Part shown: positions 16,092 through 44,640 of the stretch, piece by piece
Layout: the number at the start of each line of letters is the position of its first letter
How positions within the stretch are numbered: the stretch's first letter is position 1
Source: Solirubrobacterales bacterium
Lineage (GTDB): Bacteria > Actinomycetota > Thermoleophilia > Solirubrobacterales > Solirubrobacteraceae
DNA: 64,000 nucleotides
NCBI GenBank assembly: GCA_027315115.1
Contig: DAHUYQ010000024.1
Coordinates: forward strand, 1 to 64,000
Direction: 5' to 3'
Translations under genes and position numbers: made by a program
Notes under the pieces: generated by a model
The model's database searches: none
Seen by the model: the letters and a program-made list of their open reading frames with translations, nothing else
What the model was told of the DNA's origin: nothing

Positions 16092-18371
16092 TCAGGCGCT
16101 CGGACGCGGGACGGGGGGCCGCGCCGGCGGGCGCGCCGCTGGCCTGGCCACCGCCGGCCCGGTCGCGCTCTCACCCGGCCGCACTGCGCTTCTGGTCTCG
16201 ATCGCCGCCTCCTCGCCGGCGGAGCGGCGCAGGTGCAGCTCGATCATCTCCCGCTGCAGGTTGCGCGGCGGCTGCCCCGGCGCCTGGTCTCGTCTGCGCC
16301 AGACACCGTCGCTGTGCAGCTCCCAGGAGCTCTGGTTGTCGGCGAAGGCCCGTTCGAGCGTGTCCAGCAGGTCGGCCTGCAGGTCAGGGTCGTGGACCGG
16401 CGCCGCAAGCTCGACGCGGTGATCGAGGTTGCGCGGCATGAGGTCAGCCGAGGCGATGAAGACGGTCTGCTCACCGTCGCGCTGGAAGACGTAGACGCGC
16501 GAGTGCTCGAGGAAGCGGCCGACGATCGAGACGACGGTGATGTTCTCCGAGATGCCGGGCAGGCCCGGGCGCAGGCAGCAGATGCCGCGCACGTTGAGAT
16601 CCACCTTCACGCCGGCCTGGGAGGCCCTGTAGAGCGCCCTGATGCAGCCGCCGTCCACGAGCGCGTTCATCTTCATCGCGATCCGCGCCGGTTTCTGGGA
16701 CGTGTGCGAGGCGATCGTGCGCTCGACCTGCTCCACCATGCCGTGGCGCAGCATGTCGGGCGCGGTCAGCACCTGGCGGTAGTGCTGCGGCCGGCCGAAG
16801 CCCGTGAGGTAGTTGAACATGTCGGCCACGTCGGCGCCGAGCTGCTCGTCGATGGTCATCAGGCCGAAGTCCGTGTAGAGGCGCGCGGTGGCCGAGTGGT
16901 AGTTGCCCGTGCCGATGTGGACGTAGTTGCGCACGCCATCCCCCTCGCGCCTGACCACCAGCACGCACTTGGCGTGGGTCTTCAGGGCGGGCAGGCCGTA
17001 GACGACGTGCACGCCGGCCTCCTCCAGCGCCTTGGCCCAGTGGATGTTGGTGCGCTCGTCGAAGCGGGCCGTGAGCTCGACCAGCGCGACCGCCTGCTTG
17101 CCGCGTTCGCTTGCTTGCATCAGCGCCGGCACCATCGCCGAGTCATCGCTGGTGCGGTAGACGGTCTGCTTGATCGCCAGCACGTTCGGGTCTTCCACCG
17201 CCTGCTCCACGAAGCGCTCGACGGAGGTGGCGAAGGAGTCGTAGGGGTGGTGCACCAGGAGGTCGCCTTCGCGCATCGCGGCCATCACGTCGGGGCGTTC
17301 GCCCTCGTTGCTCTGCAGACGAGGATGGGTCACGCCCGCGAAGGGCGGGAAGCGCAGCTCGGGCATCCCTGGCAGGCCCGCGATCTGCGAGAGCGAGCCC
17401 ATGTCGAGCAGGCCCTCGACGGGGTAGACCTCCTCGGACTGCACGCCGAGCAGGCCGACGAGCTCCTCGCGCAACCGCTGCGACATGCTCGCCTCGATCT
17501 CCACGCGCACCAGCTCGCCGAAGCGCCTGCGGCGCAGCTCGTCCTCAACCGCCTGCAGCAGGTCGGCGGCGTCGTCGGAGACCTCCAGATCGGCGTCCCT
17601 GGTCACGCGGAAGACCGCCGAGTCGACGATCTCCATACCCGGGAAGAGCGCGTCCAGATGGCGCTCGATCACCTCCTCCAAGGCCACGAAGGCGATCGCC
17701 TGCTCTCCCTGGGAGCCGTTCGCGTTCAGCTCGTGGGCGGGGTGCACCCTCACGAAGCGCGGCAGTATCTCGCTTGGCACCTTCACGCGCGCGAACACGG
17801 TCTGCCCGCTGACCGGGTCGCGCACGAGCACCGCGAGGCTGAGCGAGAGGTTGGATATGTAGGGGAAGGGCCTGCCCGGAGCGACGGCCAGCGGCGTCAG
17901 CGCCGGGAAGATCGTGCGTCTGAAGCGCTCGGCCGCCTCGGCTCGCTGCTGCTTGTCTAGCTGCTCGTAGCGCAGCACGTGGATGCCCTGGGCGGCAAGC
18001 TTCTCGCGCAGGTCGCTCTGGAAGCAGCGGGTCAGACGGGCGCCCAGCCCCAGCACCCGCTCTCTGATCGCCGCGATCGTCTCGGTCGGCGTGAGCCCGT
18101 CCTGGCCGGGATTCTCGACCCCCGCGTCGATCTGGTCGTGTAGGCCGGCCACGCGGACCATGTAGTACTCGTCGAGGTTGGTCGTGTAGATCGCGCAGTA
18201 CTTCACACGCTCCAGCAGCGGCACGGTCGGGTCCTCGGCGAGCTGCAGCACCCGCTCGTTGAAGTCCAGCCACGAGAGCTCGCGGTTGATGTAGAGGGCG
18301 TGATCCCGCAGCGATCCGGCCGCGTCCCGGCTGGGATCGCGGAGCTGGTTGTGCGCATGCTCCTGGCTCAT
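16092..18371 (-). CDS. ppk1: Polyphosphate kinase 1
   Basis: 759-residue PPK1, which makes inorganic polyphosphate from ATP by way of a phosphohistidine. Domain order is as usual: N-terminal INRELSWLDFNERVLQLAED; a head domain with PGRPFPYISNLSLSLAV; and two phospholipase-D-like catalytic domains with THAKCVLVVRR (the autophosphorylated His equivalent), GTGNYHSATARLYTDFGL, and VGRFLEHSRVYVF (second catalytic His). The C-terminal 45 residues are a P/A/R-rich tail. The ATG at 18371 is preferred over a GTG at 18380 because GAGGGTGAG then sits at normal spacing. It is divergent from the SixA-like gene with 30 bp between. Polyphosphate metabolism fits the phosphate island further right. Confidence 0.95.
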   Translation of the reverse strand: MSQEHAHNQLRDPSRDAAGSLRDHALYINRELSWLDFNERVLQLAEDPTVPLLERVKYCAIYTTNLDEYYMVRVAGLHDQIDAGVENPGQDGLTPTETIAAIRERVLGLGARLTRCFQSDLREKLAAQGIHVLRYEQLDKQQRAEAAERFRRTIFPALTPLAVAPGRPFPYISNLSLSLAVLVRDPVSGQTVFARVKVPSEILPRFVRVHPAHELNANGSQGEQAIAFVALEEVIERHLDALFPGMEIVDSAVFRVTRDADLEVSDDAADLLQAVEDELRRRRFGELVRVEIEASMSQRLREELVGLLGVQSEEVYPVEGLLDMGSLSQIAGLPGMPELRFPPFAGVTHPRLQSNEGERPDVMAAMREGDLLVHHPYDSFATSVERFVEQAVEDPNVLAIKQTVYRTSDDSAMVPALMQASERGKQAVALVELTARFDERTNIHWAKALEEAGVHVVYGLPALKTHAKCVLVVRREGDGVRNYVHIGTGNYHSATARLYTDFGLMTIDEQLGADVADMFNYLTGFGRPQHYRQVLTAPDMLRHGMVEQVERTIASHTSQKPARIAMKMNALVDGGCIRALYRASQAGVKVDLNVRGICCLRPGLPGISENITVVSIVGRFLEHSRVYVFQRDGEQTVFIASADLMPRNLDHRVELAAPVHDPDLQADLLDTLERAFADNQSSWELHSDGVWRRRDQAPGQPPRNLQREMIELHLRRSAGEEAAIETRSAVRPGESATGPAVARPAARPPARPPVPRPSA

Positions 18372-18401
18372 CGTGCTCACCCTCTATGCTCGCAGAAGAG
18401 T

Positions 18402-18902
18402 ATGGCTCGCCAACTGTGGCTTCTTCGTCATGCCGAGGCTGAGCCTCACGGCACGCGCCCCGACGCGGAGCGCGCACTGACCAGGCGCGGCGAGCAACAG
18501 GCGCGCGCTGCCGGGGCGGCGGTCGCGCGGATGGACGTCGATTTCGAGGCGGTTCTGTTCAGCCCGAAGGTGCGCGCGATGGACACCGCGCGGCTGGCGG
18601 GGGAGGTCGGCGGCACGGTCTTGCAGGACCCGATGCGCGAACACCGTCCGCTGGCCGAAGGGTACGGAGTCGCGCAGGCGCTCGACGACCTTGCCGGGCT
18701 CTCCGCGGATGGGCGGCTGATGCTCGTGGGCCACGAACCGGATCTCGCGGGCGTGATCGGCGATCTCACGGGCGCCGCGGTCACCTTGAAGAAGGGCGGG
18801 CTGGCCGTCGTTCGCCTACGCGGCGCAGCCGGCGAGCTCGCCGTCCTGCTGCGTCCGCTCGAGCTCGCGCTGATCGCGGGCAGCGCCGTCGCCGAGGTCT
18901 GA
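18402..18902 (+). CDS. sixA: SixA-like histidine phosphatase
   Basis: 166-residue single-domain histidine phosphatase. The RHG-type motif is LLRHAEAEP, with the catalytic His near residue 9; the second His is in LMLVGHEPDL. SixA in E. coli removes phosphate from phosphohistidine of phosphotransfer proteins; other members act on nucleotides or sugars. The start follows AGAAGAG. It is divergent from ppk1 with a 30-bp shared promoter gap, and its last 87 bp overlap the 3' end of the response regulator on the other strand. Confidence 0.83.
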   Translation: MARQLWLLRHAEAEPHGTRPDAERALTRRGEQQARAAGAAVARMDVDFEAVLFSPKVRAMDTARLAGEVGGTVLQDPMREHRPLAEGYGVAQALDDLAGLSADGRLMLVGHEPDLAGVIGDLTGAAVTLKKGGLAVVRLRGAAGELAVLLRPLELALIAGSAVAEV

Positions 18903-19721
18903 GCGGCCTGCCTGGCTCTCCTGCGTCTGCAGGCTGGGCGAATCGGCGGGCTCGGCGGCGAAGCGGTAGCCGATACCGAAGTGCGTGTGGATGTAGCGCC
19001 ACTCTGGAGACGCCTTCTCGAGCTTCTGGCGCAGCTTTCGGACGAAGACGTCCACCGATCTATCGCCTCTGACCATCGCATACCCCCAGAGCCGCGAGTA
19101 GATCTCCTCGCGCTCCAGCACGCGGCCTTCGGCGGCGGAAAGGAGCTGGATCAGCTCGAACTCGCGCCTGGTCAGCTCCAGCGAACGCCCGCTCACGAAG
19201 GCTTGGAAGCGATCGGGCCGCACCTCGACCTCGCCGGCGACCATCGGCTTGGCCTCCGTCTTGCCGGTCGCCCTGCGGCGGCGTCGCACGACGCTCTCAA
19301 CGCGTGCGATCACCTCCTCGGGATGCGTGGGCTTGGTGATCCAGTCGTCGGCCCCGAGGCGCAGGCCGCGCACCCTTTGGGCGACGGTGGACGGGCCGGT
19401 GCAGACGACGATGCCGAGCTCTGGCAGCGCGTCGCAGAGACGCTCCAGCCACTCCCACGCCTGGTGCCCGAGCACGCTCAGATCCAGCACGAGCGCGCTC
19501 AGCCGCATCGCCGTCACGGCCTCCACGGGAACCGGCCCGCCGAGCACGCGATGCTCGTGGCCCAGGCGATCGAGCCGCTTGCCCAGAACCTGGATGAAGC
19601 CGCTGTCGCGGTCCAGGACCGCGATCCGCAACGTCGCGTCTCTCCCGGCTCTGCCTGCGCTCGGCCCCCCTACGGGGAGCGAAAGCGCCGCTTCGTCCTT
19701 GGCACCGATGCTCACGGCCAT
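18816..19721 (-). CDS. OmpR/PhoB-type response regulator
   Basis: 301-residue two-domain regulator. The receiver spans about 30-150, with phosphoacceptor Asp in LVLDLSVLG and conserved Lys in WITKPTHPEE; the acidic pocket is DRD. The winged-helix DNA-binding domain spans about 165-262, with LTRREFELIQLLSAAEG and RSVDVFVRKLRQKLE, ending in IHTHFGIGYRF. A 40-residue C-terminal extension exists because the frame runs into the antisense end of the SixA gene. No kinase gene is adjacent. The DNA-binding domain is closely similar to the receiver-less protein next to pstS1 (37386-37811), so a PhoP/PhoB-like role is a good inference. A PHO-box-like repeat lies 54 bp upstream. Confidence 0.85.
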   Translation of the reverse strand: MAVSIGAKDEAALSLPVGGPSAGRAGRDATLRIAVLDRDSGFIQVLGKRLDRLGHEHRVLGGPVPVEAVTAMRLSALVLDLSVLGHQAWEWLERLCDALPELGIVVCTGPSTVAQRVRGLRLGADDWITKPTHPEEVIARVESVVRRRRRATGKTEAKPMVAGEVEVRPDRFQAFVSGRSLELTRREFELIQLLSAAEGRVLEREEIYSRLWGYAMVRGDRSVDVFVRKLRQKLEKASPEWRYIHTHFGIGYRFAAEPADSPSLQTQESQAGRSDLGDGAARDQRELERTQQDGELAGCAA

Positions 19722-36244: not shown

Positions 36245-37306
36245 TCAGCTTTCGATCTTGCCGATCGTGGCTTCGTCGGCCGCCACGATTTCCGGTGGCA
36301 GCGGCGCGAAGTCGAGCTTCGGGCCGAATTCCTGGCCGGTCGTGACCGCCCACTTCAGGAACGGCTTGAGCAGGTCCGCCTTGGGGCTCTTCAGCGGAAC
36401 CAGGGCGTAGGTGAACGTGGAGATCGGGTACGCTTCCGGCGCCGAAGCGGGCGGATCCACGATCGTGGCTTCGTTGTTGGCCGGGATCGACTTCAGCGTC
36501 TTGGCCGCAGCCTCGATGCTCGGGATGCCGGGCACCGGGAACTTCTTGGCCGCGTTTTCGACCAGCGCGTAGTCGAATTTGTTGGCCAGCACGTAGGCGA
36601 TCGCGATGTAGCCGATCGACCCCTTGGTGTTGGTGATGTCCGCGCCCACGCCGGAGTTCCCCTTGCCGCCGATGCCGACCGGGAAGCTGACCGTGGTCGA
36701 GTGCCCGATCTTCGAGGCCCACTGCGGGCTGACGTGCGAGAGGAAGTTGGTGAAGGCGAACGTGTCGCCGCTGCCGTCGGAGCGGTAGACCGGCGTGATT
36801 TTCTCCGCCGGCAGTTTCACGCCGGGGTTCAGAGCCGCGATCTTGGAGTCGTTCCAGGTCGTGATCTTGCCTTCGTAGATTTCCGCGAGCAGCGGGCCGG
36901 TCAGCTTGAGTTCGTTGCCGACGCCTTCGACGTTGTAGGCGACGTCGGTCGCCGCCAGAGCCCACGGGATCTGGACCACGCCTTTGGCTTCCTTGAACTC
37001 GTCTTCGGTCAGCGGTGCGTCACTGGCGCCGAAGTCGACCGTGCGAGCCGTGATCTGCGCGATCCCGCCGCCGCTTCCGATCGGTCCGTAGGTCACCGCG
37101 ACCTTGGCCTTTTCCTGGTACTCGGGGATCCAATCCCCGGTGATCAGCGGGGCGACCAGCGTGCTGCCGGCGCCCACCAGCGTCTTGGACCCGCTCGACG
37201 CGCCGCTGCTTTCGCTGCCTTTTTCTTTGGAGCTGGAACCGCACGCGGCGACGCCCAGCATGAGCAGCGCCGCTGAGGCCAGCGCGCCGATCTTTCTCGT
37301 CTTCAA
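36245..37306 (-). CDS. pstS: Phosphate-binding lipoprotein PstS (set 1)
   Basis: 353-residue periplasm-side phosphate receptor. The signal peptide ends in a lipobox, GVAAC. Phosphate-contact motifs are GAGSTLVAP near residue 46, GSGGGIAQI, DFGASDAPL and RSDGSGDTF. The TTG at 37306 is chosen because AGAGGAG lies 7-8 bases upstream; a longer frame to 37366 gives a poor signal peptide. First gene of pstSCAB-phoU. A PHO box lies about 100 bp upstream, within the end of the preceding regulator gene. Glutamate codons are mostly GAA. Confidence 0.94.
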   Translation of the reverse strand: MKTRKIGALASAALLMLGVAACGSSSKEKGSESSGASSGSKTLVGAGSTLVAPLITGDWIPEYQEKAKVAVTYGPIGSGGGIAQITARTVDFGASDAPLTEDEFKEAKGVVQIPWALAATDVAYNVEGVGNELKLTGPLLAEIYEGKITTWNDSKIAALNPGVKLPAEKITPVYRSDGSGDTFAFTNFLSHVSPQWASKIGHSTTVSFPVGIGGKGNSGVGADITNTKGSIGYIAIAYVLANKFDYALVENAAKKFPVPGIPSIEAAAKTLKSIPANNEATIVDPPASAPEAYPISTFTYALVPLKSPKADLLKPFLKWAVTTGQEFGPKLDFAPLPPEIVAADEATIGKIES

Positions 37307-37385
37307 TGCCAATCTCCTCTGGCTTGTCGTTTGCGCGTGGCCGGCTGTTACGCGCTTGCCGGCCACTGTGCCGCCCGGAGTGTGC

Positions 37386-37811
37386 TCAGCCGGGGACGGA
37401 CCCGTTGTGAAGATCTCGTGAAGGTTGGGGATGGAACCGATATCCGAAGCCTGCGTGGGTGTGGATGAAGCGCCGGTCGGGCAGCGCTCGCTCCAGCTTC
37501 CCCCGCAGCTTGCTCACGTAGACGTCCACGGAGCGGTCGCCGGAGCGCATCGAGCCGCCCCACACGGCCTCGTAGAGCTCCTCGCGCGAGACGATCGTGC
37601 CGGCTCGGCGCGCAAGCGCCACCAGCAGCGCAAACTCGCGCACCGAGAGCATCAGCGCCTGGCCGCTGGCCAGCGCCAGCCCCTCGTCGGGTTTGATCTC
37701 CAGCTCGCCGACGTGCAGGGTCGCCTCGTCCGCGACGAGCTCGGGCCTCGCAAGCCCCTCCACGCCGTCATGTGATGTCGCGACCCCGACGTTCTGATGC
37801 GAAGCTGCCAC
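37386..37811 (-). CDS. PhoB-like DNA-binding protein lacking a receiver domain
   Basis: 141 residues consisting of little more than an OmpR/PhoB winged-helix domain: LSVREFALLVALARRAGTIV, SREELYEAVWG, RSVDVYVSKLRGKLERALP and IHTHAGFGYRF. The sequence closely follows the DNA-binding half of the full response regulator at 18816-19721, down to RSVDVxVxKLRxKLE and IHTHxGxGYRF. Receiver residues are absent, so it cannot be phosphorylated in the usual way. It lies directly upstream of pstS1 in the same orientation and has a three-unit PHO box 43 bp before its start. It may act as a constitutive activator, a competitor of the full regulator, or a PhoU-controlled factor. The GTG start at 37811 has no clear Shine-Dalgarno. 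Confidence 0.82.
   Translation of the reverse strand: MAASHQNVGVATSHDGVEGLARPELVADEATLHVGELEIKPDEGLALASGQALMLSVREFALLVALARRAGTIVSREELYEAVWGGSMRSGDRSVDVYVSKLRGKLERALPDRRFIHTHAGFGYRFHPQPSRDLHNGSVPG
37402..37423 (-). promoter_or_regulatory. PHO box of the pstS1 operon
   Basis: On the minus strand CTTCACGAGAT is followed directly by CTTCACAACGG: two 11-bp units with an identical CTTCAC core, the known form of the PhoP/PhoB binding site. It faces pstS1 and lies inside the last codons of the receiver-less regulator gene. Confidence 0.75.
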
Positions 37812-37853: not shown

Positions 37854-37886
37854 CGCTCGTGACCGACGTGTGAACAACGAGTGAAC
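37854..37886 (-). promoter_or_regulatory. Three-unit PHO box between regulator and DUF47 gene
   Basis: Read on the minus strand, GTTCACTCGTT, GTTCACACGTC and GGTCACGAGCG follow each other without gaps, each 11 bp. All three match the G(G/T)TCAC core of the Streptomyces PHO box. They face the receiver-less regulator (start 37811) and lie 83 bp from the divergent DUF47 gene (start 37969), so they could serve both. Confidence 0.78.
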
Positions 37887-37968
37887 GACCGCAACGATCG
37901 CCCGTTTGCCCGTCATGGCGGCCCGCTCGGTCGTGCACCGCATGCAGCGCAGCCGGTACGCTGGGCCG

Positions 37969-38598
37969 ATGAGCGCGCTGCGGCGAAGCGTTGACGGCGA
38001 TCTGGCCGACCTGCTCGAGCGGGGCGGCGAGGTGATCGTGCGCGCAAGTCGGCTGATGCGCGACCTGCTCGCCGACTACCCCGAGCGCGCGTCGCTGGCG
38101 CAGGAGATCGGCGAGTGCGAGCAGGAGGGCGACTCGATCACCCACGACATCATCTATCGGATCAGGGGCCCCAAGCGTGTGAAGGCGCCGTTCGAGCCGG
38201 GCGAAGGATTTGCGCTCGCCACGGCGCTCGACGACATCGTCGACCACACCGAGCAGACCGCGGCGCTGCTCGGCCTATATGGGATCGAAGCTCCGATGGA
38301 GCGCGCGGTCGAGCTGGCCGACGTGCTCGTGGAGTCCTCAGAGCAGGTGCTGCAGGCGTTGCGCAGCCTCACCTCCGGCGATGACGTCTCGGCTCGCCTG
38401 GTCGAGATCCACCGGCTGGAGAACATTGGCGACAACCTGCTGCGCGACGGCGTGGCCGCGCTGTTCGCCGGCGGCGCTGACCCGATGGTCGTGATCCGCT
38501 GGAAGGACATCTTCGAGTCGCTGGAGGCCGCGATCGACGCCTGCGAGACCGTCGCGCACGTGATCGAGGGGATCACGCTGCGGGCACGGAGCAGGTAG
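37969..38598 (+). CDS. DUF47/PhoU-like protein (Pit accessory type)
   Basis: 209-residue all-alpha protein of the DUF47 family, distant relatives of PhoU. Motifs include ECEQEGDSITHDIIYRI, TALDDIVDHTEQTAALLGLY and HRLENIGDNLLRDGVAALFA, with the E-x-x-D and NIGD metal-binding pattern. DUF47 proteins usually partner a PitA-type low-affinity phosphate transporter; none is present next to it here, so it may act on the Pst systems or on a distant pit gene. The ATG at 37969 is chosen at the start of the conserved region. Divergent from the receiver-less regulator across the three-unit PHO box. Confidence 0.82.
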   Translation: MSALRRSVDGDLADLLERGGEVIVRASRLMRDLLADYPERASLAQEIGECEQEGDSITHDIIYRIRGPKRVKAPFEPGEGFALATALDDIVDHTEQTAALLGLYGIEAPMERAVELADVLVESSEQVLQALRSLTSGDDVSARLVEIHRLENIGDNLLRDGVAALFAGGADPMVVIRWKDIFESLEAAIDACETVAHVIEGITLRARSR

Positions 38599-38682: not shown

Positions 38683-41187
38683 CTACGCCGCCTGCTCGCG
38701 CTCGCTCTCCTCTGCGCCCGCCATCGTGGCCACGTAGCCTTCCGCTAGTCGTTGCATCGCGCCCTCCCAGGTGCGCTCGCGGACTCGGGCCAGGCCGGCC
38801 GACGCCAGGCGGCGATGCAGCAGTGGCGAGGCGGTGACCTCGAGCAGCGCTCCCGCCAGCGCCGGCGCATGCGGCTCGCAGAGCAGGCCGCTGACATGGT
38901 CCTCGATCAGCGTCAGCGGGCCGCCCTTGGCGACGGCGACCACCGGCAGGCCGCTCGCCTGCGCCTCGAGGATCACCTGCCCGAAGGTGTCGGTCTGACT
39001 CGGGAACACGAACACGTCGGCGTTCGCGTAGGCGCGGGCGAGGTCCGATCCCTGCAGCCATCCCAGGAAGCTCGCGTGCTCCCCGAGCCGCCCGCGCAGC
39101 ATCTCCTGCTCGGGCCCGCCGCCGGCGAGCACCAGGTGCAGGCGCGGATCGCGTGCGCGCGCGAGCTCGAAGCTCTCGGCGAGCAGATCGGCCCCCTTCT
39201 CGTGCGTGATGCGACCGGCGTAGAGCACGTCGATCCGTGCGATCTCGCCGCTGCTCGCGTCCACGCCGGCCGGCCTCTCGGTGGCCTTCGACGGGCCGTG
39301 CAGCGATGGCCGCTGCCGCAGCGAGGGAGAGAACCTGCTCGTGTCCACGCCCCGGTCCCAGCGCATCACCCGCTCTGCGGGAACGCCGATCTCGGCGAGG
39401 GCGGCGTCGGAGGCGGCGCTGGGGGAGAGCACCATGTCGCAGGCGCCGTAGAAGGCTCCGACGGCGCTCGCCATCGCCGCCGCGATGCTCTGCCGGCCTG
39501 AGCGCAGCGCCGCGTAGGCGGTCAGCTCGGTGTGGTAGCTGCCGATCAGCGGCAGGCTCAGCGCGCGCGCGAGCAGCACGCCGGCCACGCCGGCCGGACC
39601 GGGGGAGCAGACGTGGATCGCGTCGAACCCGCCGTCGGTGAGGGTCTCCACGGCGGATGGCAGGCTCGGCACGCCGATACGCAGGCCGGGATAGAAGGGG
39701 ACGTCCACCTCCGCGACGGCCGCGAGGCGGCGGTCCACCTCAGGGTCGGTGCCGACCACCTCGATCTCGAAGCCGGGCACGCCACGGTGGCGGATTTCCT
39801 CGATCGTGCGGCTGACGCCGTGGGTGGCGCCGATGCCGTCGGCGATGATCGCCACGCGGGGTTGCTCGCCCTCGCCGCGGCCGATATCGATCTTCGCGCG
39901 CTCACGGGCGAGGAACGCCTTGGCGGGCGCGTATGGGATCGCGGCGATGCACGCCTCAAAGACGCCGAATGCCGCGGACTCGATGCTTTGCTCGCCGGAG
40001 ATCGCCTCCAGCGCCTGGTCGACCGCGCCGCGCAGCTTGCGCTCGTGAGCGCGGGATGCCTTGCGGTAGAGCCCGGAGTGGCTGAAGCCGTCCTGCTGCA
40101 GGTGGGCGATCAGACCACGCTCGTCGAGGTGGTCGAGCTCCACCGCCGCGAGCCAGGCGCGCAGCAGCGCGCGTGCGTCGGCCGGCGTCAGATCGCCGGC
40201 GCCGCTGCCGTGGCGGGCGTCGCCTTCGCGCAGCACCCGCGCGGCCATGCTCAGGACGGCGTGGGGATTCGGAGTCGCGCCCGCCTCGCCCAGCTCGCCC
40301 GCCTCGCCCAGCCCGCCCGCCTCGCTCGCCCCGCCCGCTGCGCGAGCCTCGCCCGGCGCCCCTGCGCCGCGCCCGATCGAGCGGGCCGCCAGCGCGATCG
40401 CGGCATGGGCCCACTTCGCCGCGCTGCCATGCGAGCCGCCGGGCGCCACGTTGCCCGTGCGCACGTGCGCCAGGAACTGCTCGACGCTGTGAGCCCCGTG
40501 CGCCTCGGTCCAGGTGCGCCCGATGTCGACGCCGGCGTGGTCGTCGCTGCCGCCGATGCCGGCGCCGTCGAGCGCGCCGATGTAGGTGGCGGCCGGGATG
40601 TTCAGCTCGCGGGCGCGGGCGCCGTTTCGCACCTCCCAGACCCTGAACATCTCGGCCAGGCGCCTGCGGTGACGGGCCGTGAGCGTCGCCGCCACCGAGT
40701 AGTAGGGGTGCGCCAGCGCGCAGGCGATCCTGCGCTCGTGCATGTAGATCGCGCACTGCTCGACGTTGTCGTTGTGCGCCTGCAGCCATTGGTGGTCTTC
40801 GGGTGTGATGCCGTAGCAGAGCACGTGCACCGCCTGCGGCTCTCCCCTGAAGCCGACCGTCAGCTCCTCCGAGATGAAGACGTCCGGTCTGTCGGCGATC
40901 TGCAGGACGCCGTCTATCGTGTCGTGGTCGGTGATGGTGACGAAGTCCATGCCCCGCCGCTTGGCCAGCTCGTAGACCTCCTCCGGCGGTGTCGCGCACT
41001 CGGGCAGGCCGACCGCCCGCTGCACTCCCAGCCGCGAGATCTCCGAAGCGCTGGAGTGAGCGTGCATGTCCACCCTCGCGGGTGAGCGCCGCGCCTGCCC
41101 CCTTGGCTGCTCGCCTGTCACAGAGATGGCCTGCCCCGTCCCGCCGAACGGGCCCTGCGTCTCGGCGCTCTGCTCCGAAATGCTCAT
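38683..41187 (-). CDS. PHP-domain / GT4 glycosyltransferase fusion
   Basis: 834 residues. Residues 38-250 are a PHP-type metal-dependent phosphoesterase domain: VDMHAHSSASE (HxH), VTITDHDTIDG and GGSDDHAG. A linker follows with a low-complexity stretch (GLGEAGELGEAG). Residues 450-825 are a GT-B glycosyltransferase of family 4: VAIIADGIGATHGVSRTIEE, PLIGSYHTELTAYAALRSGR, VLYAGRITHEKGADLLAESF, and the donor-site VFPSQTDTFGQVILEAQASG. GT4 members add sugars to lipid or polyprenyl acceptors. A PHO box 85 bp upstream suggests induction in phosphate starvation, when many bacteria replace phospholipids with glycolipids. ATG 41187 follows GGACGGGAG. Confidence 0.8.
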   Translation of the reverse strand: MSISEQSAETQGPFGGTGQAISVTGEQPRGQARRSPARVDMHAHSSASEISRLGVQRAVGLPECATPPEEVYELAKRRGMDFVTITDHDTIDGVLQIADRPDVFISEELTVGFRGEPQAVHVLCYGITPEDHQWLQAHNDNVEQCAIYMHERRIACALAHPYYSVAATLTARHRRRLAEMFRVWEVRNGARARELNIPAATYIGALDGAGIGGSDDHAGVDIGRTWTEAHGAHSVEQFLAHVRTGNVAPGGSHGSAAKWAHAAIALAARSIGRGAGAPGEARAAGGASEAGGLGEAGELGEAGATPNPHAVLSMAARVLREGDARHGSGAGDLTPADARALLRAWLAAVELDHLDERGLIAHLQQDGFSHSGLYRKASRAHERKLRGAVDQALEAISGEQSIESAAFGVFEACIAAIPYAPAKAFLARERAKIDIGRGEGEQPRVAIIADGIGATHGVSRTIEEIRHRGVPGFEIEVVGTDPEVDRRLAAVAEVDVPFYPGLRIGVPSLPSAVETLTDGGFDAIHVCSPGPAGVAGVLLARALSLPLIGSYHTELTAYAALRSGRQSIAAAMASAVGAFYGACDMVLSPSAASDAALAEIGVPAERVMRWDRGVDTSRFSPSLRQRPSLHGPSKATERPAGVDASSGEIARIDVLYAGRITHEKGADLLAESFELARARDPRLHLVLAGGGPEQEMLRGRLGEHASFLGWLQGSDLARAYANADVFVFPSQTDTFGQVILEAQASGLPVVAVAKGGPLTLIEDHVSGLLCEPHAPALAGALLEVTASPLLHRRLASAGLARVRERTWEGAMQRLAEGYVATMAGAEESEREQAA

Positions 41188-41258
41188 CTCCCGTCCTCTC
41201 TTATCTATCTCTCCAGTTACGCCGAGATGTTCTCCGGAAATAGCGCTCACCCTTGTAA

Positions 41259-41293
41259 CCGAATGACCGCCATTCGGTGAAGGGTTTGTGAAC
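41259..41293 (-). promoter_or_regulatory. PHO box and adjoining hairpin before the PHP-GT gene
   Basis: On the minus strand GTTCACAAACC (41293-41283) is followed by CTTCACCGAAT (41282-41272), two 11-bp PHO units facing the PHP-glycosyltransferase gene. The 7-bp inverted repeat CCGAATG (41259-41265) / CATTCGG (41271-41277) overlaps the proximal unit. Confidence 0.7.
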
Positions 41294-42025: not shown

Positions 42026-42898
42026 GTGCACGAACCGATCTCTTACTTCCAGGCGATCATCCTGGGGATCATCCAGGGCGTCGCCGAGCCGTTCCCGATC
42101 TCCAGCCTCGGCCACAGCGTGGTGCTGCCGCATCTCTTCGGCTGGAACATCCACCAGAACAAGCCCTACTTCCTCAGCTTCCTGGTCGGCACGCATGTCG
42201 CCACGGCGCTCGTGCTGATCGGCATCTTCTTCAAAGACTGGGTCGAAATCGTGCGCGGGCTGGTGCGCTCGATCAGGACGCGCAGCATCGCCGGCGACGA
42301 CGTCTACGCGCGGCTGGGCTGGCTGCTGGTGGTCGGCACGGTTCCCGCCGGCATCCTCGGGCTCGCGCTGCAGAAACCGCTGCAGACCCTGTTCGCCTCG
42401 GCCTCGGCGGCGGCCGCGTTCCTGATCGTCAACGGCATCGCGCTGCTGGCGTTCGAGCGCCTGCGCGCGCGCCCTCCGCGACCGGGCGACTACAAGGGCG
42501 ACTCCGACAAGCGGCTCGCCAGGCTGCGCTGGGGCCAGGCATTCGGGATCGGGACCGCTCAGGCGGCGGCTCTGGTGCCGGGCATCTCGCGAGAGGGATT
42601 CGCGATGGGCGGCGGCCTGATCTCGGGCCTCTCCAACGAGGACGCCGCGCGCTACGCCTTCCTGCTGGCCACGCCGATCATCCTCGCCGCCGGTCTGCTG
42701 AAGCTCCCGCAGCTTCTGGGCCCCGACGGGAATGGGGTGCGCGGGCAGGCGTTCGTGGCGGCGCTCGTGGCGGCGGTGGCGACCTTCTTCGCCGTGAAGT
42801 TCCTACTGCGCTACTTCCAGACCAACCGCCTGACGGCGTTCGGGGTCTACTGCATCGGGCTCGGAGCAGTGTGCAGCGTCGTCTTCGCCGTTAGCTGA
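42026..42898 (+). CDS. uppP: Undecaprenyl-diphosphatase (UppP/BacA family)
   Basis: 290-residue membrane enzyme that dephosphorylates undecaprenyl diphosphate to recycle the wall-lipid carrier. Motif 1 is GIIQGVAEPFPISSLGHSVV, with the catalytic-site Glu, Ser and His kept, but differing from the usual EFLPISSSGH. Motif 2 is LVPGISREGFAMGGGL, with the Arg kept and the usual Ser after it changed to Glu. Eight helices are predicted. The GTG start at 42026 lacks a clear ribosome-binding site. The motif changes suggest a divergent subfamily, so the exact lipid substrate is less certain. It lies inside the phosphate island, but no PHO box precedes it. Confidence 0.8.
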   Translation: MHEPISYFQAIILGIIQGVAEPFPISSLGHSVVLPHLFGWNIHQNKPYFLSFLVGTHVATALVLIGIFFKDWVEIVRGLVRSIRTRSIAGDDVYARLGWLLVVGTVPAGILGLALQKPLQTLFASASAAAAFLIVNGIALLAFERLRARPPRPGDYKGDSDKRLARLRWGQAFGIGTAQAAALVPGISREGFAMGGGLISGLSNEDAARYAFLLATPIILAAGLLKLPQLLGPDGNGVRGQAFVAALVAAVATFFAVKFLLRYFQTNRLTAFGVYCIGLGAVCSVVFAVS

Positions 42899-42973: not shown

Positions 42974-44545
42974 CTACGGATAGGCGTTGTAGACGGCCTT
43001 TTCGAAGCTGGGAAGCTGCACGTTCTCCGCGTAGCCGAGCGTCTGCAGTTTGAAGAGCGCCTCGACGCTCGCCAGCAGCGAGAAGTGGTTGTACTGCCCG
43101 GTCACGTAGGAGCTGCCGGGCTTGACGTACCTGGACAGCAGCAGCATCCCGACGCGCCCACCGCCGACGGGCTGGCCGGTGGCCGTGGTCGTTGGGTCGC
43201 TCGCCGGCAGGTTTGGGTACTTCGGCGTGGCGCAGCAGCCGCTGTCGTCGGCGCCCGTGCCGCTCTGCGGCGCCTGGTCGAAGGCGATCGCGATCATCCC
43301 GCCTTCCTTGTAGGCGGCTGAGCTCTCGATCTCGGGCACGACCTTCTTGAGGAAGCCTTCGGCGGCAGGCAGTCCCGCGGGGGCGCCCGAGCCGCAGCCC
43401 GCCGGGTCGCCGTCTTCGCAGGGGTCGGGCGCGATGTAGGAGAGGGAGGGGGTGGTGTTGGCGGCTTCCAGGTCCTTGGCGAGCTCGCCGATGCCGACGT
43501 TCTCCTCCGCGCAGTTGGAGCTCGAGGTCACCGAGTCGAAGTAGAGGAAGGGGTCGCGCCAGGTCACGAACGGACTGCTCGTGCTCGCGGTCGAGTAGGG
43601 GTCGCTCGCGCCCGCGGCCGGGCGTGGGCACTTGCCCTGCAGGCTCGCCGAGGAGCCTTCGCCGAGACCCTGGACGTACGCCTTCCACGTGTCGCCCGCC
43701 GCGACGAGCTGGTCGCCGACCGTCAGCGCGCTGATTGGATAGAGGCAGCCGGTGCCGAGCGCCTGGCCTTCGGAGCCGGACTTGCCCGGTGAGAGCTGTT
43801 CGTAGGTCGGGCAGCCCGTGAGGGTCTGGGGAGTCGGGCCCTGTCCGCTGATCAGCGCGATCTCGTTGGCGAGCTGGCCAGAGGCCACGGCGAAGTAGCC
43901 GCCGATCAGCTCACCCTGCTGACGCAGCGTGCTCGCCAGATAGGGCGCCTGCGAGCTCGCGCCGAACGCCGCTTCGTAGCCCTGTTCGCCGAGCACGATC
44001 ACGAACACGTGCTTGATCGGCGGCAGCGTCGAGGTTTCGGATTTGCCGCGCGAGCCGCTGCCTTGCGAGCCTTTGCCTGACGGTTCTTCTTCGGATTCCG
44101 AGCCTTTGGAGCCCGATTCTTCCGATTCCTGTTCTTTGGCCCCTTTCCCGGCGCCCGAGGGTTCTTCGCCGGAGGAGCCTTCTTCTTCGCCGCCGGCTGA
44201 TTCTTCTTCGGAGGATGCTTCTTTGGATTCTTCTTCAGGTTCGGAGCTTGCTTCGGTTTCGCTGGTGGAGGTGGAGGTCGAAGTCGTGGTCGTGCCGGTC
44301 GCTGCCGGCGACGGGGCGGAGGCCAGCAGTGCCGGGGCGCTTTCTTGCGGACGGGTCCAGACGCCGAGGCCGACACCGAACGCGAGCAGGGCGACCACCG
44401 CGAACGCGATCGCCCACGGCGAAGGCGTCGGGAACCCGCCATCCTGCCGATCGTGCTCCGGCGTGCCGTGGAGCTCGGAGCCCTCGGCGGGCGTCGGGGC
44501 GTTCTCGCCGCCGTCGGGGGCGTCGGAGCTCGGGGGGCCTTCCAT
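42974..44545 (-). CDS. Membrane-anchored phosphoesterase-family protein (PF04185-like)
   Basis: 523 residues. A short cytoplasmic N-terminus, one helix (about 48-67), a 75-residue Ser/Glu/Gly-rich acidic linker, then an extracytoplasmic domain beginning KHVFVIVLGEQGYEAAFG, which resembles the PF04185 phosphoesterase/acid phosphatase/phospholipase C family. YIAPDPCEDGDP, GGMIAIAFDQAP and YNHFSLLASVEALF match later family blocks. The family's opening Glu/Asn motif is changed here to GEQGY, so activity should not be assumed. Start at 44545 is preferred to 44620 because the latter lies inside a PHO box. Divergent from the zinc-ribbon genes. Scavenging phosphate from organic esters would fit the context. 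Confidence 0.7.
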   Translation of the reverse strand: MEGPPSSDAPDGGENAPTPAEGSELHGTPEHDRQDGGFPTPSPWAIAFAVVALLAFGVGLGVWTRPQESAPALLASAPSPAATGTTTTSTSTSTSETEASSEPEEESKEASSEEESAGGEEEGSSGEEPSGAGKGAKEQESEESGSKGSESEEEPSGKGSQGSGSRGKSETSTLPPIKHVFVIVLGEQGYEAAFGASSQAPYLASTLRQQGELIGGYFAVASGQLANEIALISGQGPTPQTLTGCPTYEQLSPGKSGSEGQALGTGCLYPISALTVGDQLVAAGDTWKAYVQGLGEGSSASLQGKCPRPAAGASDPYSTASTSSPFVTWRDPFLYFDSVTSSSNCAEENVGIGELAKDLEAANTTPSLSYIAPDPCEDGDPAGCGSGAPAGLPAAEGFLKKVVPEIESSAAYKEGGMIAIAFDQAPQSGTGADDSGCCATPKYPNLPASDPTTTATGQPVGGGRVGMLLLSRYVKPGSSYVTGQYNHFSLLASVEALFKLQTLGYAENVQLPSFEKAVYNAYP

Positions 44546-44618
44546 CGCCGGCGAGTCTCGCGTGTGGACGTGTCGATGTTGTGAAGAACCTGTTTGAGCG
44601 GAGGATCCCTCCGCCAAC

Positions 44619-44640
44619 ATTCACTTCCCGTTCACATTTG
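44619..44640 (+). promoter_or_regulatory. PHO box between phosphoesterase and zinc-ribbon genes
   Basis: ATTCACTTCCC (44619-44629) is followed directly by GTTCACATTTG (44630-44640), two 11-bp units with the TTCAC core in register. The orientation faces the zinc-ribbon gene at 44734; the phosphoesterase start lies 74 bp on the other side. Confidence 0.65.

What the first reader, a model, noticed from the sequence alone, without database searches (positions are those of the whole stretch)
38683..41293. PHP-glycosyltransferase fusion under a PHO box
A PHP metal-dependent phosphoesterase domain fused to a GT4 glycosyltransferase has a two-unit PHO box at 41272-41293. Phosphate-starved bacteria often swap phospholipids for glycolipids; a single protein that could both free phosphate and add sugar would be a compact device for that. 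Its acceptor is unknown.
Basis: inference. Interest (0 to 1): 0.7.

Follow-up and report, generated by a model that had tools for sequence, protein, structure and literature searches.

The report
Phosphate-controlled phosphatase–glycosyltransferase fusion
A soil bacterium carries, under the switch it uses for phosphate hunger, one protein that joins a phosphate-removing enzyme to a sugar-adding enzyme; the pairing and the switch are both conserved among its relatives, and neighbouring genes suggest that it makes a sugar-bearing membrane lipid, which has not been tested.

Summary
Window 38683-41187 (-) encodes an 834-aa PHP–GT4 fusion. Its PHO box at 41272-41293 belongs to a four-unit, 11-bp array. 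Of 80 scorable upstream regions of close orthologs (window included), 62 carry at least 9 of 10 box bases on the sense strand, 5 on the antisense strand. PHP metal ligands and GT4 catalytic residues are nearly invariant. The fusion is older than the box: eight distant members are fused too, but none has the box.

The lipid-swap idea is partly supported. The GT domain's best family match is N-acetylglucosaminyl-phosphatidylglycerol synthase, far below its cut-off. A GpgD-like deacetylase match follows within 120 nt in 13 of 66 loci; a PIG-L de-N-acetylase, another family, follows three distant homologs. This points to N-acetylhexosamine transfer, then deacetylation. A lipid acceptor is likely but unproven; a soluble phosphorylated acceptor is the main rival. 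In this window no deacetylase gene adjoins. It is a new variant of known Pho-controlled glycolipid or glycoside synthesis.

The parts
38683..41187 (-). PHP–GT4 fusion gene, 834 aa, ATG at 41187
   Evidence: full-length in 19 of the 61 genomes searched (own genome included), pieces in 4 more
40414..41082 (-). PHP phosphoesterase domain (residues 36-258); candidate metal ligands H42 H44 H88 E108 H121 H160 D215 H217, plus invariant D87, D216 and E63
   Evidence: ligand roles by analogy with known PHP enzymes (recalled)
39880..40272 (-). helical linker domain, residues 306-436, no Pfam family
   Evidence: model; no Pfam match there
38686..39870 (-). GT4 glycosyltransferase domain (residues 440-834) with R659, K664, D733-x7-E741 and SYHTEL
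   Evidence: functional roles of the residues recalled
41272..41293 (-). two-unit PHO box GTTCACAAACC CTTCACCGAAT
41250..41271 (-). units 3 (degenerate) and 4 (GGTTACAAGGG) of the same 11-bp array
   Evidence: over 58 loci, mean matches to TTCAC of 4.79, 4.38, 2.69 and 4.09 (of 5) at offsets 0, 11, 22 and 33; mean 1.12 elsewhere
37407..37422 (-). PHO box before pstS (36245-37366)
   Evidence: PstS by Pfam PF12849
37870..37885 (-). PHO box between the receiver-less regulator and the PhoU-like gene
37386..37811 (-). 141-aa OmpR/PhoB-type DNA-binding protein without a receiver domain
37906..38598 (+). PhoU_div (DUF47) gene, convergent with the fusion
   Evidence: within the fetched flanks of 16 of 75 anchored loci, window included
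42026..42898 (+). UppP/BacA undecaprenyl pyrophosphate phosphatase, on the far side of the PHO box
   Evidence: within the fetched flanks of 6 of 75 anchored loci, window included
42974..44620 (-). phosphoesterase of Pfam PF04185 with an N-terminal hydrophobic stretch (membrane anchor by reading)
   Evidence: PHO box 44620-44635 (+) at its start
18816..19721 (-). full-length PhoP-like response regulator beside a polyphosphate-kinase-like gene (16092-18380, named by reading)

Best explanation
A PhoP-type regulator switches on this gene when phosphate is short. The GT4 domain moves a sugar, most likely N-acetylglucosamine from UDP-GlcNAc, onto a glycerolipid head. The PHP domain removes a phosphate in the same pathway, either preparing the acceptor (phosphorylated lipid to diacylglycerol) or trimming the product. 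In many relatives a deacetylase made from a following gene (DUF2334) then turns the N-acetyl sugar into a free amino sugar, and a second GT4 may add another sugar. The result would be a phosphorus-free or phosphorus-poor aminoglycolipid that replaces phospholipid. Shown by computation: the fusion, intact active sites, the PHO box and its conservation, and the neighbour genes. Inferred: the sugar, the acceptor, the PHP substrate, the order of steps and the phosphate response.
For: Conserved PHO box array. Complete PHP and GT4 residues in 74 close sequences (chosen by an HxH-bearing motif) and, with small exceptions, 7 distant ones; loci dropped for lacking my motif have them too where covered. 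19 of 19 GT domains match NF053787 GlcNAc-PG synthase, the top family for the window; there the match spans both lobes, residues 40-381 of 395. A DUF2334 match begins 8-84 nt after the stop in 13 of 66 loci, and in 8 more follows a second GT4. All seven neighbouring DUF2334 proteins tested match only NF053788 GlcNAc-PG deacetylase at 67.6-90.2 bits. PIG-L follows the fusion in the 3 fetched homologs of family f6 (two by Pfam; the third by tblastn). Other Pho genes and a PF04185 phosphoesterase share the window. In P. aeruginosa GpgS and GpgD make GlcN-PG (PMC12713373: abstract and passages seen).
Against: Both GpgS and GpgD matches are far below the curated cut-offs (115.9 vs 480; 67.6-90.2 vs 280). 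No deacetylase adjoins the gene in this window; the genome's only DUF2334 hit lies on another contig, among glycosyltransferase-like ORFs by reading, and does not match NF053788 at E<=1e-6. The GT acceptor lobe is acidic in 19 of 19 (pI 4.7-6.2), whereas membrane-bound glycolipid GTs usually have basic ones (recalled). By profile and fold the nearest solved structure is MshA, a GT for a soluble phosphorylated acceptor (acceptor recalled). Known PHP enzymes act mostly on soluble substrates (recalled). GlcN-PG keeps its phosphate, so that exact product would not save phosphorus. Only 26 of 57 loci with 2 kb downstream have a DUF2334 or second GT4 there.
Confidence: 0.42

Rival explanations
1. 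Synthase–phosphatase for a soluble glycoside. GT4 glycosylates a phosphorylated small acceptor (inositol phosphate, glycerol phosphate or a sugar phosphate) and PHP removes the phosphate, as sucrose-phosphate synthase/phosphatase fusions do (recalled); a deacetylase follows, as in the MshA, phosphatase, MshB steps of mycothiol synthesis (recalled).
For: Nearest solved GT structures by profile are MshA and a sucrose-phosphate synthase; Foldseek also ranks MshA and BshA first. Acidic, soluble-looking acceptor lobe. PIG-L, the MshB family (recalled), follows the fusion in f6 homologs. PHP enzymes hydrolyse small phosphates (NF041577 sub-cut-off match). A glucosylglycerate-hydrolase-like enzyme and GH31 are neighbours in relatives.
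Against: The best GT family is a lipid GT, matched over both lobes. No MshC over its cut-off in any of 19 genomes. Pho control fits lipid or wall saving better than a solute (inference).
Confidence: 0.25
2. Envelope glycan rather than membrane lipid: the protein glycosylates a wall-polymer precursor (undecaprenyl or teichoic-acid-like), part of swapping phosphate-rich for phosphate-free wall polymer.
For: UppP beside the PHO box in the window and near 6 of 75 anchored loci, window included; TuaC is a sub-cut-off match of 17 of 19 GT domains; a NAGPA phosphodiester glycosidase near some loci (L070 by Pfam; L111 by reading).
Against: Among the neighbours that I scanned by family no polymerase or wall-polymer ligase appeared, but these are a selection; UppP is rare at the locus; TuaC ranks far below GpgS.
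Confidence: 0.13
3. The PHP domain is regulatory or structural and the gene is an ordinary constitutive GT4; the box is a passenger of the pst region.
For: Distant fusions have no PHO box; PHP sequence matches are weak.
Against: Metal ligands nearly invariant over deep divergence. The box is conserved where pst genes are not close: PstS lies within the fetched flanks (about 6 kb or less) of only 6 of 75 anchored loci, window included.
Confidence: 0.1

Closest known systems
GpgS/GpgD of Pseudomonas aeruginosa (GlcNAc-PG synthase and deacetylase; NF053787, NF053788)
   Same: GT4 best matches GpgS over both lobes; many relatives have a DUF2334/GpgD-like gene next door
   Different: Scores far below both cut-offs; ours is fused to PHP and has a PHO box; no deacetylase adjoins it in this window; a flippase like GpgF was not looked for
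PlcP + Agt phosphate-starvation lipid remodelling (PMC4796936: abstract, outline and section 13 seen)
   Same: Phosphoesterase plus glycosyltransferase with Pho boxes, often adjacent genes there
   Different: PlcP is a phospholipase C of the metallophosphatase type (fold recalled), not PHP; two separate proteins there, one here; DAG acceptor not shown here
HexS/HexD/HexF of Clostridioides difficile (PMC10128005: abstract, outline and section 11 seen)
   Same: GT and deacetylase in one operon for an aminohexosyl lipid
   Different: Other regulator (HexRK); no PHP and no phosphate link in the parts seen
MshA (mycothiol) and sucrose-phosphate synthase/phosphatase
   Same: Nearest solved GT4 structures; GT coupled to a phosphatase step (recalled)
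   Different: Phosphatase there is unidentified (MshA2) or of HAD type, not PHP (recalled); no MshC over cut-off in 19 genomes

Membership tests
PHP phosphoesterase superfamily | PHP fold | tested here: met
   the 15 Foldseek matches at E<=1e-3 are PHP proteins or PHP-bearing polymerases by title or recall (PsfC's title names no family); model pLDDT 77.4
PHP phosphoesterase superfamily | conserved metal-ligand set | tested here: met
   H42 H44 H88 E108 H121 H160 D215 H217 in 74 of 74 close sequences; H121 is D in 2 of 7 distant. D40/H42/H44 were partly selected for; five close loci and L178 that the motif missed keep all eight (L178 has E at 40), and L134 keeps those covered. The Asp near position 49 of some PHP enzymes (recalled) is not conserved
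GT4 glycosyltransferase | Pfam GT4 and group 1 domains with donor-site residues | tested here: met
   above cut-offs; R659, K664, D/E733, E741 (K664 is E in 1 of 7 distant; 733 and 741 are R in 1 of 74 close each; 733 is E in 4 of 74 close and 3 of 7 distant)
GpgS, NF053787 | curated score 480 bits | tested here: not met
   115.9 bits
GpgD, NF053788, for the neighbouring DUF2334 proteins | curated score 280 bits | tested here: not met
   67.6-90.2 bits in seven proteins
PHO box of PhoP/PhoB type | at least two 11-nt direct repeats, GTTCACC-like in Streptomyces | tested here: met
   definition from PMC4415409 section 4
Pho regulon member | transcript rises in low phosphate through PhoP | not testable with these tools
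   no expression data
PlcP–Agt lipid remodelling system | PlcP-type phospholipase C | tested here: not met
   the fused phosphoesterase is PHP; a PlcP elsewhere in the genome was not looked for
MshA/mycothiol pathway | MshC present | tested here: not met
   0 of 19 genomes over the TIGR03447 cut-off; 18 of 19 have a long match below it

The most novel reading that the evidence does not exclude
A single polypeptide carries out the whole phospholipid-to-glycolipid exchange: its PHP domain dephosphorylates a lipid (a job given elsewhere to PlcP-type enzymes) and hands the acceptor to its own GT4 domain, which installs GlcNAc; a deacetylase then makes a cationic, phosphorus-free glucosaminyl lipid as the phosphate-starvation membrane lipid of Solirubrobacterales.
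Probability: 0.2. Interest if true: 0.82.

Novelty: new variant of a known kind. Interest (0 to 1): 0.6.

Why it matters
If right, it would put a PHP enzyme into lipid remodelling, which my searches did not find in print, and would be a one-chain counterpart of PlcP plus Agt in soil Actinomycetota whose low-phosphate lipids did not turn up in one full-text search. It makes a testable prediction (an aminosugar lipid induced by phosphate starvation) in named isolates such as Solirubrobacter soli DSM 22325, and it suggests a substrate class for this PHP subfamily. It also separates two events, an old fusion and a later Pho-type control site.

Tried and rejected
E. coli-type PHO box CTGTCAC-N6-CTGTCA: no match in the genome; the relevant consensus is the Streptomyces type. 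Mycothiol pathway: no MshC over cut-off in 19 genomes; the 18 long sub-cut-off matches are probably cysteinyl-tRNA synthetases (inference). Literature on PHP–GT fusions: (all terms required) gave no paper; (3 of 4 terms) gave 10 papers, none about such a fusion by title or opening of abstract; (Solirubrobacter, phosphate, glycolipid) gave 6 papers, none on the topic by the same measure. This covers only the held open-access library. The genome's own DUF2334 protein was considered as partner and rejected: no match to NF053788 at E<=1e-6, different contig. The two exact genome boxes outside the window were read: one lies inside a long ORF (contig 27); the other lies about 50 nt before the likely start of an ispG-like ORF (contig 34) and is not explained. 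Plasmid search with the whole protein: 0 of 619 matching records cover 80% of it. Foldseek with the whole model showed only GT or GT-like synthase matches among the 50 rows listed, hence the separate PHP model.

Limits of counts: one search dropped six loci lacking my motif; five were scored later with a slightly different upstream window, and L134 has no upstream DNA. L076 and L077 are one strain, and several L055-L134 loci are the same contigs as the unnamed G-genomes, so numbers are not fully independent. In three Patulibacter loci the antisense strand scores 10 against 9 sense. Neighbour clustering used 32 of 80 loci; the neighbour table used 75 of 81 (window included), with flanks of differing length. 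Distances run to the start of the tblastn match, not to the start codon.

Full report
What is there. The minus-strand gene 38683-41187 encodes 834 residues starting at ATG 41187. The GT4 half is unambiguous. The PHP half is remote by sequence: the best matches are CehA/McbA metallohydrolases at 38.3 bits and 3',5'-nucleoside bisphosphate phosphatase at 24.4 bits, both below cut-off. It is secure by fold: a separate AlphaFold2 model (pLDDT 77.4) finds RNase AM, PsfC, TM0559, BAD_1165, BVU_3505, Cv1693-type 2yb1 and two PHP-bearing polymerases, and nothing else, at E<=1e-3 (PHP membership of PsfC and the polymerases is recalled). A helical domain without a Pfam family links the halves.

The box. 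Across the 58 loci that score at least 9, mean matches to TTCAC at offsets 0, 11, 22 and 33 are 4.79, 4.38, 2.69 and 4.09 of 5, against 1.12 elsewhere. The first two offsets were selected for; offset 33 was not, and is the independent sign. The Streptomyces PHO motif GTTCACC and the 11-nt unit come from PMC4415409 section 4. In this genome exact TTCAC-N6-TTCAC occurs six times, none in the reversed control, and four of the six fall before pstS, the small regulator and PHP–GT4 and at the start of a PF04185 phosphoesterase gene (identities). Among orthologs 58 of 75 regions score at least 9 of 10 against 2 of 75 antisense; after adding five loci that my motif had missed, 62 of 80 against 5 of 80. 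In some orthologs (for example L037, L033, L038, L004) a TTTGCAGGGGAATCTG-like element ends six bases before the chosen ATG, which suggests a leaderless transcript (inference).

Distribution. 19 of 61 genomes in the first set, the window's own included, have the full fusion, and four more have pieces at contig ends or on separate contigs. A scan of GTDB genomes found 110 relatives and kept 80; their record titles are Solirubrobacterales or Solirubrobacteraceae, Thermoleophilaceae or Thermoleophilia, named genera such as Solirubrobacter, Conexibacter, Patulibacter and Svornostia, or unspecified Actinomycetota. In 296 genomes of the phylum, 12 have a strong PHP match (E<=1e-18); 11 sit in frames of 783-988 aa and one is a contig-edge fragment. 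All nine that I fetched are fusions. The eight of them outside the order (families f5, f6 and f20, unnamed) are about 30-39% identical, and none has a box: scores 5-7, like the antisense strand at 6-7. So the fusion is old and the Pho site a feature of the close group. Nothing outside the phylum was searched at genome scale.

Active sites. Eight candidate PHP ligands and D87, D216 and E63 are invariant in 74 close sequences; in 7 distant ones only H121 of these varies, to D in 2. That set was chosen by a D-x-H-x-H-S motif, so D40, H42 and H44 were partly guaranteed; the loci dropped by the motif keep H42 and H44 where covered. GT donor-site residues R659, K664, D/E733 and E741 are nearly invariant. 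Both halves therefore look to be under selection.

Neighbours. Downstream, a DUF2334 match begins within 120 nt in 13 of 66 loci, and in 8 more a second GT4 comes first. Seven such DUF2334 proteins match only GlcNAc-PG deacetylase in NCBIfam, below cut-off. The GT domain matches GlcNAc-PG synthase best, below cut-off, over both lobes; so do the three second GT4s tested. In the three family-f6 homologs a PIG-L de-N-acetylase takes the same place; in the five f5 and f20 homologs no match to those PIG-L proteins was seen. Two deacetylase families in one position are my main reason to infer an N-acetylhexosamine donor. A GH31 glycosidase diverges from the same intergenic region in 34 of 63 loci with enough upstream DNA; an MGH1-like hydrolase follows in some; GalU-like genes follow in L072 and L126 (by reading). 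In the window itself the next gene is a convergent PhoU-like gene; no deacetylase adjoins.

Mechanism and rivals. The best reading is Pho-induced synthesis of an (amino)glycolipid, with PHP supplying a dephosphorylation step. Against it stand the acidic acceptor lobe, the MshA and sucrose-phosphate-synthase resemblance, the sub-cut-off scores, and the lack of a neighbouring deacetylase here. The soluble synthase–phosphatase reading is a serious rival; MshC absence weakens only its mycothiol form. Known parallels seen for this report: gpgSDF (PMC12713373, abstract and passages), hexSDF (PMC10128005, abstract, outline and one section), PlcP–Agt (PMC4796936, abstract, outline and one section). 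A report of phosphorus-free lipids in a starved mycobacterium (PMC12722247, passages) shows glucuronyl-DAGs in phosphate-free medium; I did not look for PHP proteins in it.

Verdict. Real, conserved and functional-looking; the regulatory claim is strong, the biochemical claim moderate, and the lipid claim about even. New variant of a known kind.

Noticed in passing
window 37386-37811 (-): A PhoB-type DNA-binding protein without receiver domain, between pstS and a PhoU-like gene, with its own PHO box at 37870-37885. Its best full-length paralog in the genome (50% identical in the DNA-binding part) is the PhoP-like regulator at 18816-19721. Related loci keep it: in 12 loci examined the best upstream box scores 10 in 9, 9 in 1 and 8 or less in 2 (no antisense control), and in five the whole frame is only 131-141 codons. 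Possibly a constitutive competitor or feedback factor for PHO boxes.
   Followed up: partly
window 44620-44635 (+): PHO box between a PF04185 phosphoesterase (42974-44620, -) and a zinc-ribbon protein read on the + strand from about 44719; either could be Pho-controlled.
   Followed up: no
window 16092-19721: A polyphosphate-kinase-like gene (by reading) directly follows a PhoP-like response regulator whose receiver domain scores barely over the Pfam cut-off (31.0 vs 30.2 bits).
   Followed up: no
L087, L098, L102 (Patulibacter or unspecified Actinomycetota), upstream of PHP–GT4: The antisense strand carries a perfect 10/10 box beside the 9/10 sense box, as if the divergent gene had its own PHO box.
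   Followed up: no
L037, L033, L038, L004 promoter regions: TTTGCAGGGGAATCTG-like element ends six bases before the chosen ATG, suggesting leaderless transcripts.
   Followed up: partly
G000 contig 34, 58388-58403 (+), read as L186: Exact TTCAC-N6-TTCAC about 50 nt before the likely start of an ispG-like ORF; chance or a real Pho site is open.
   Followed up: no
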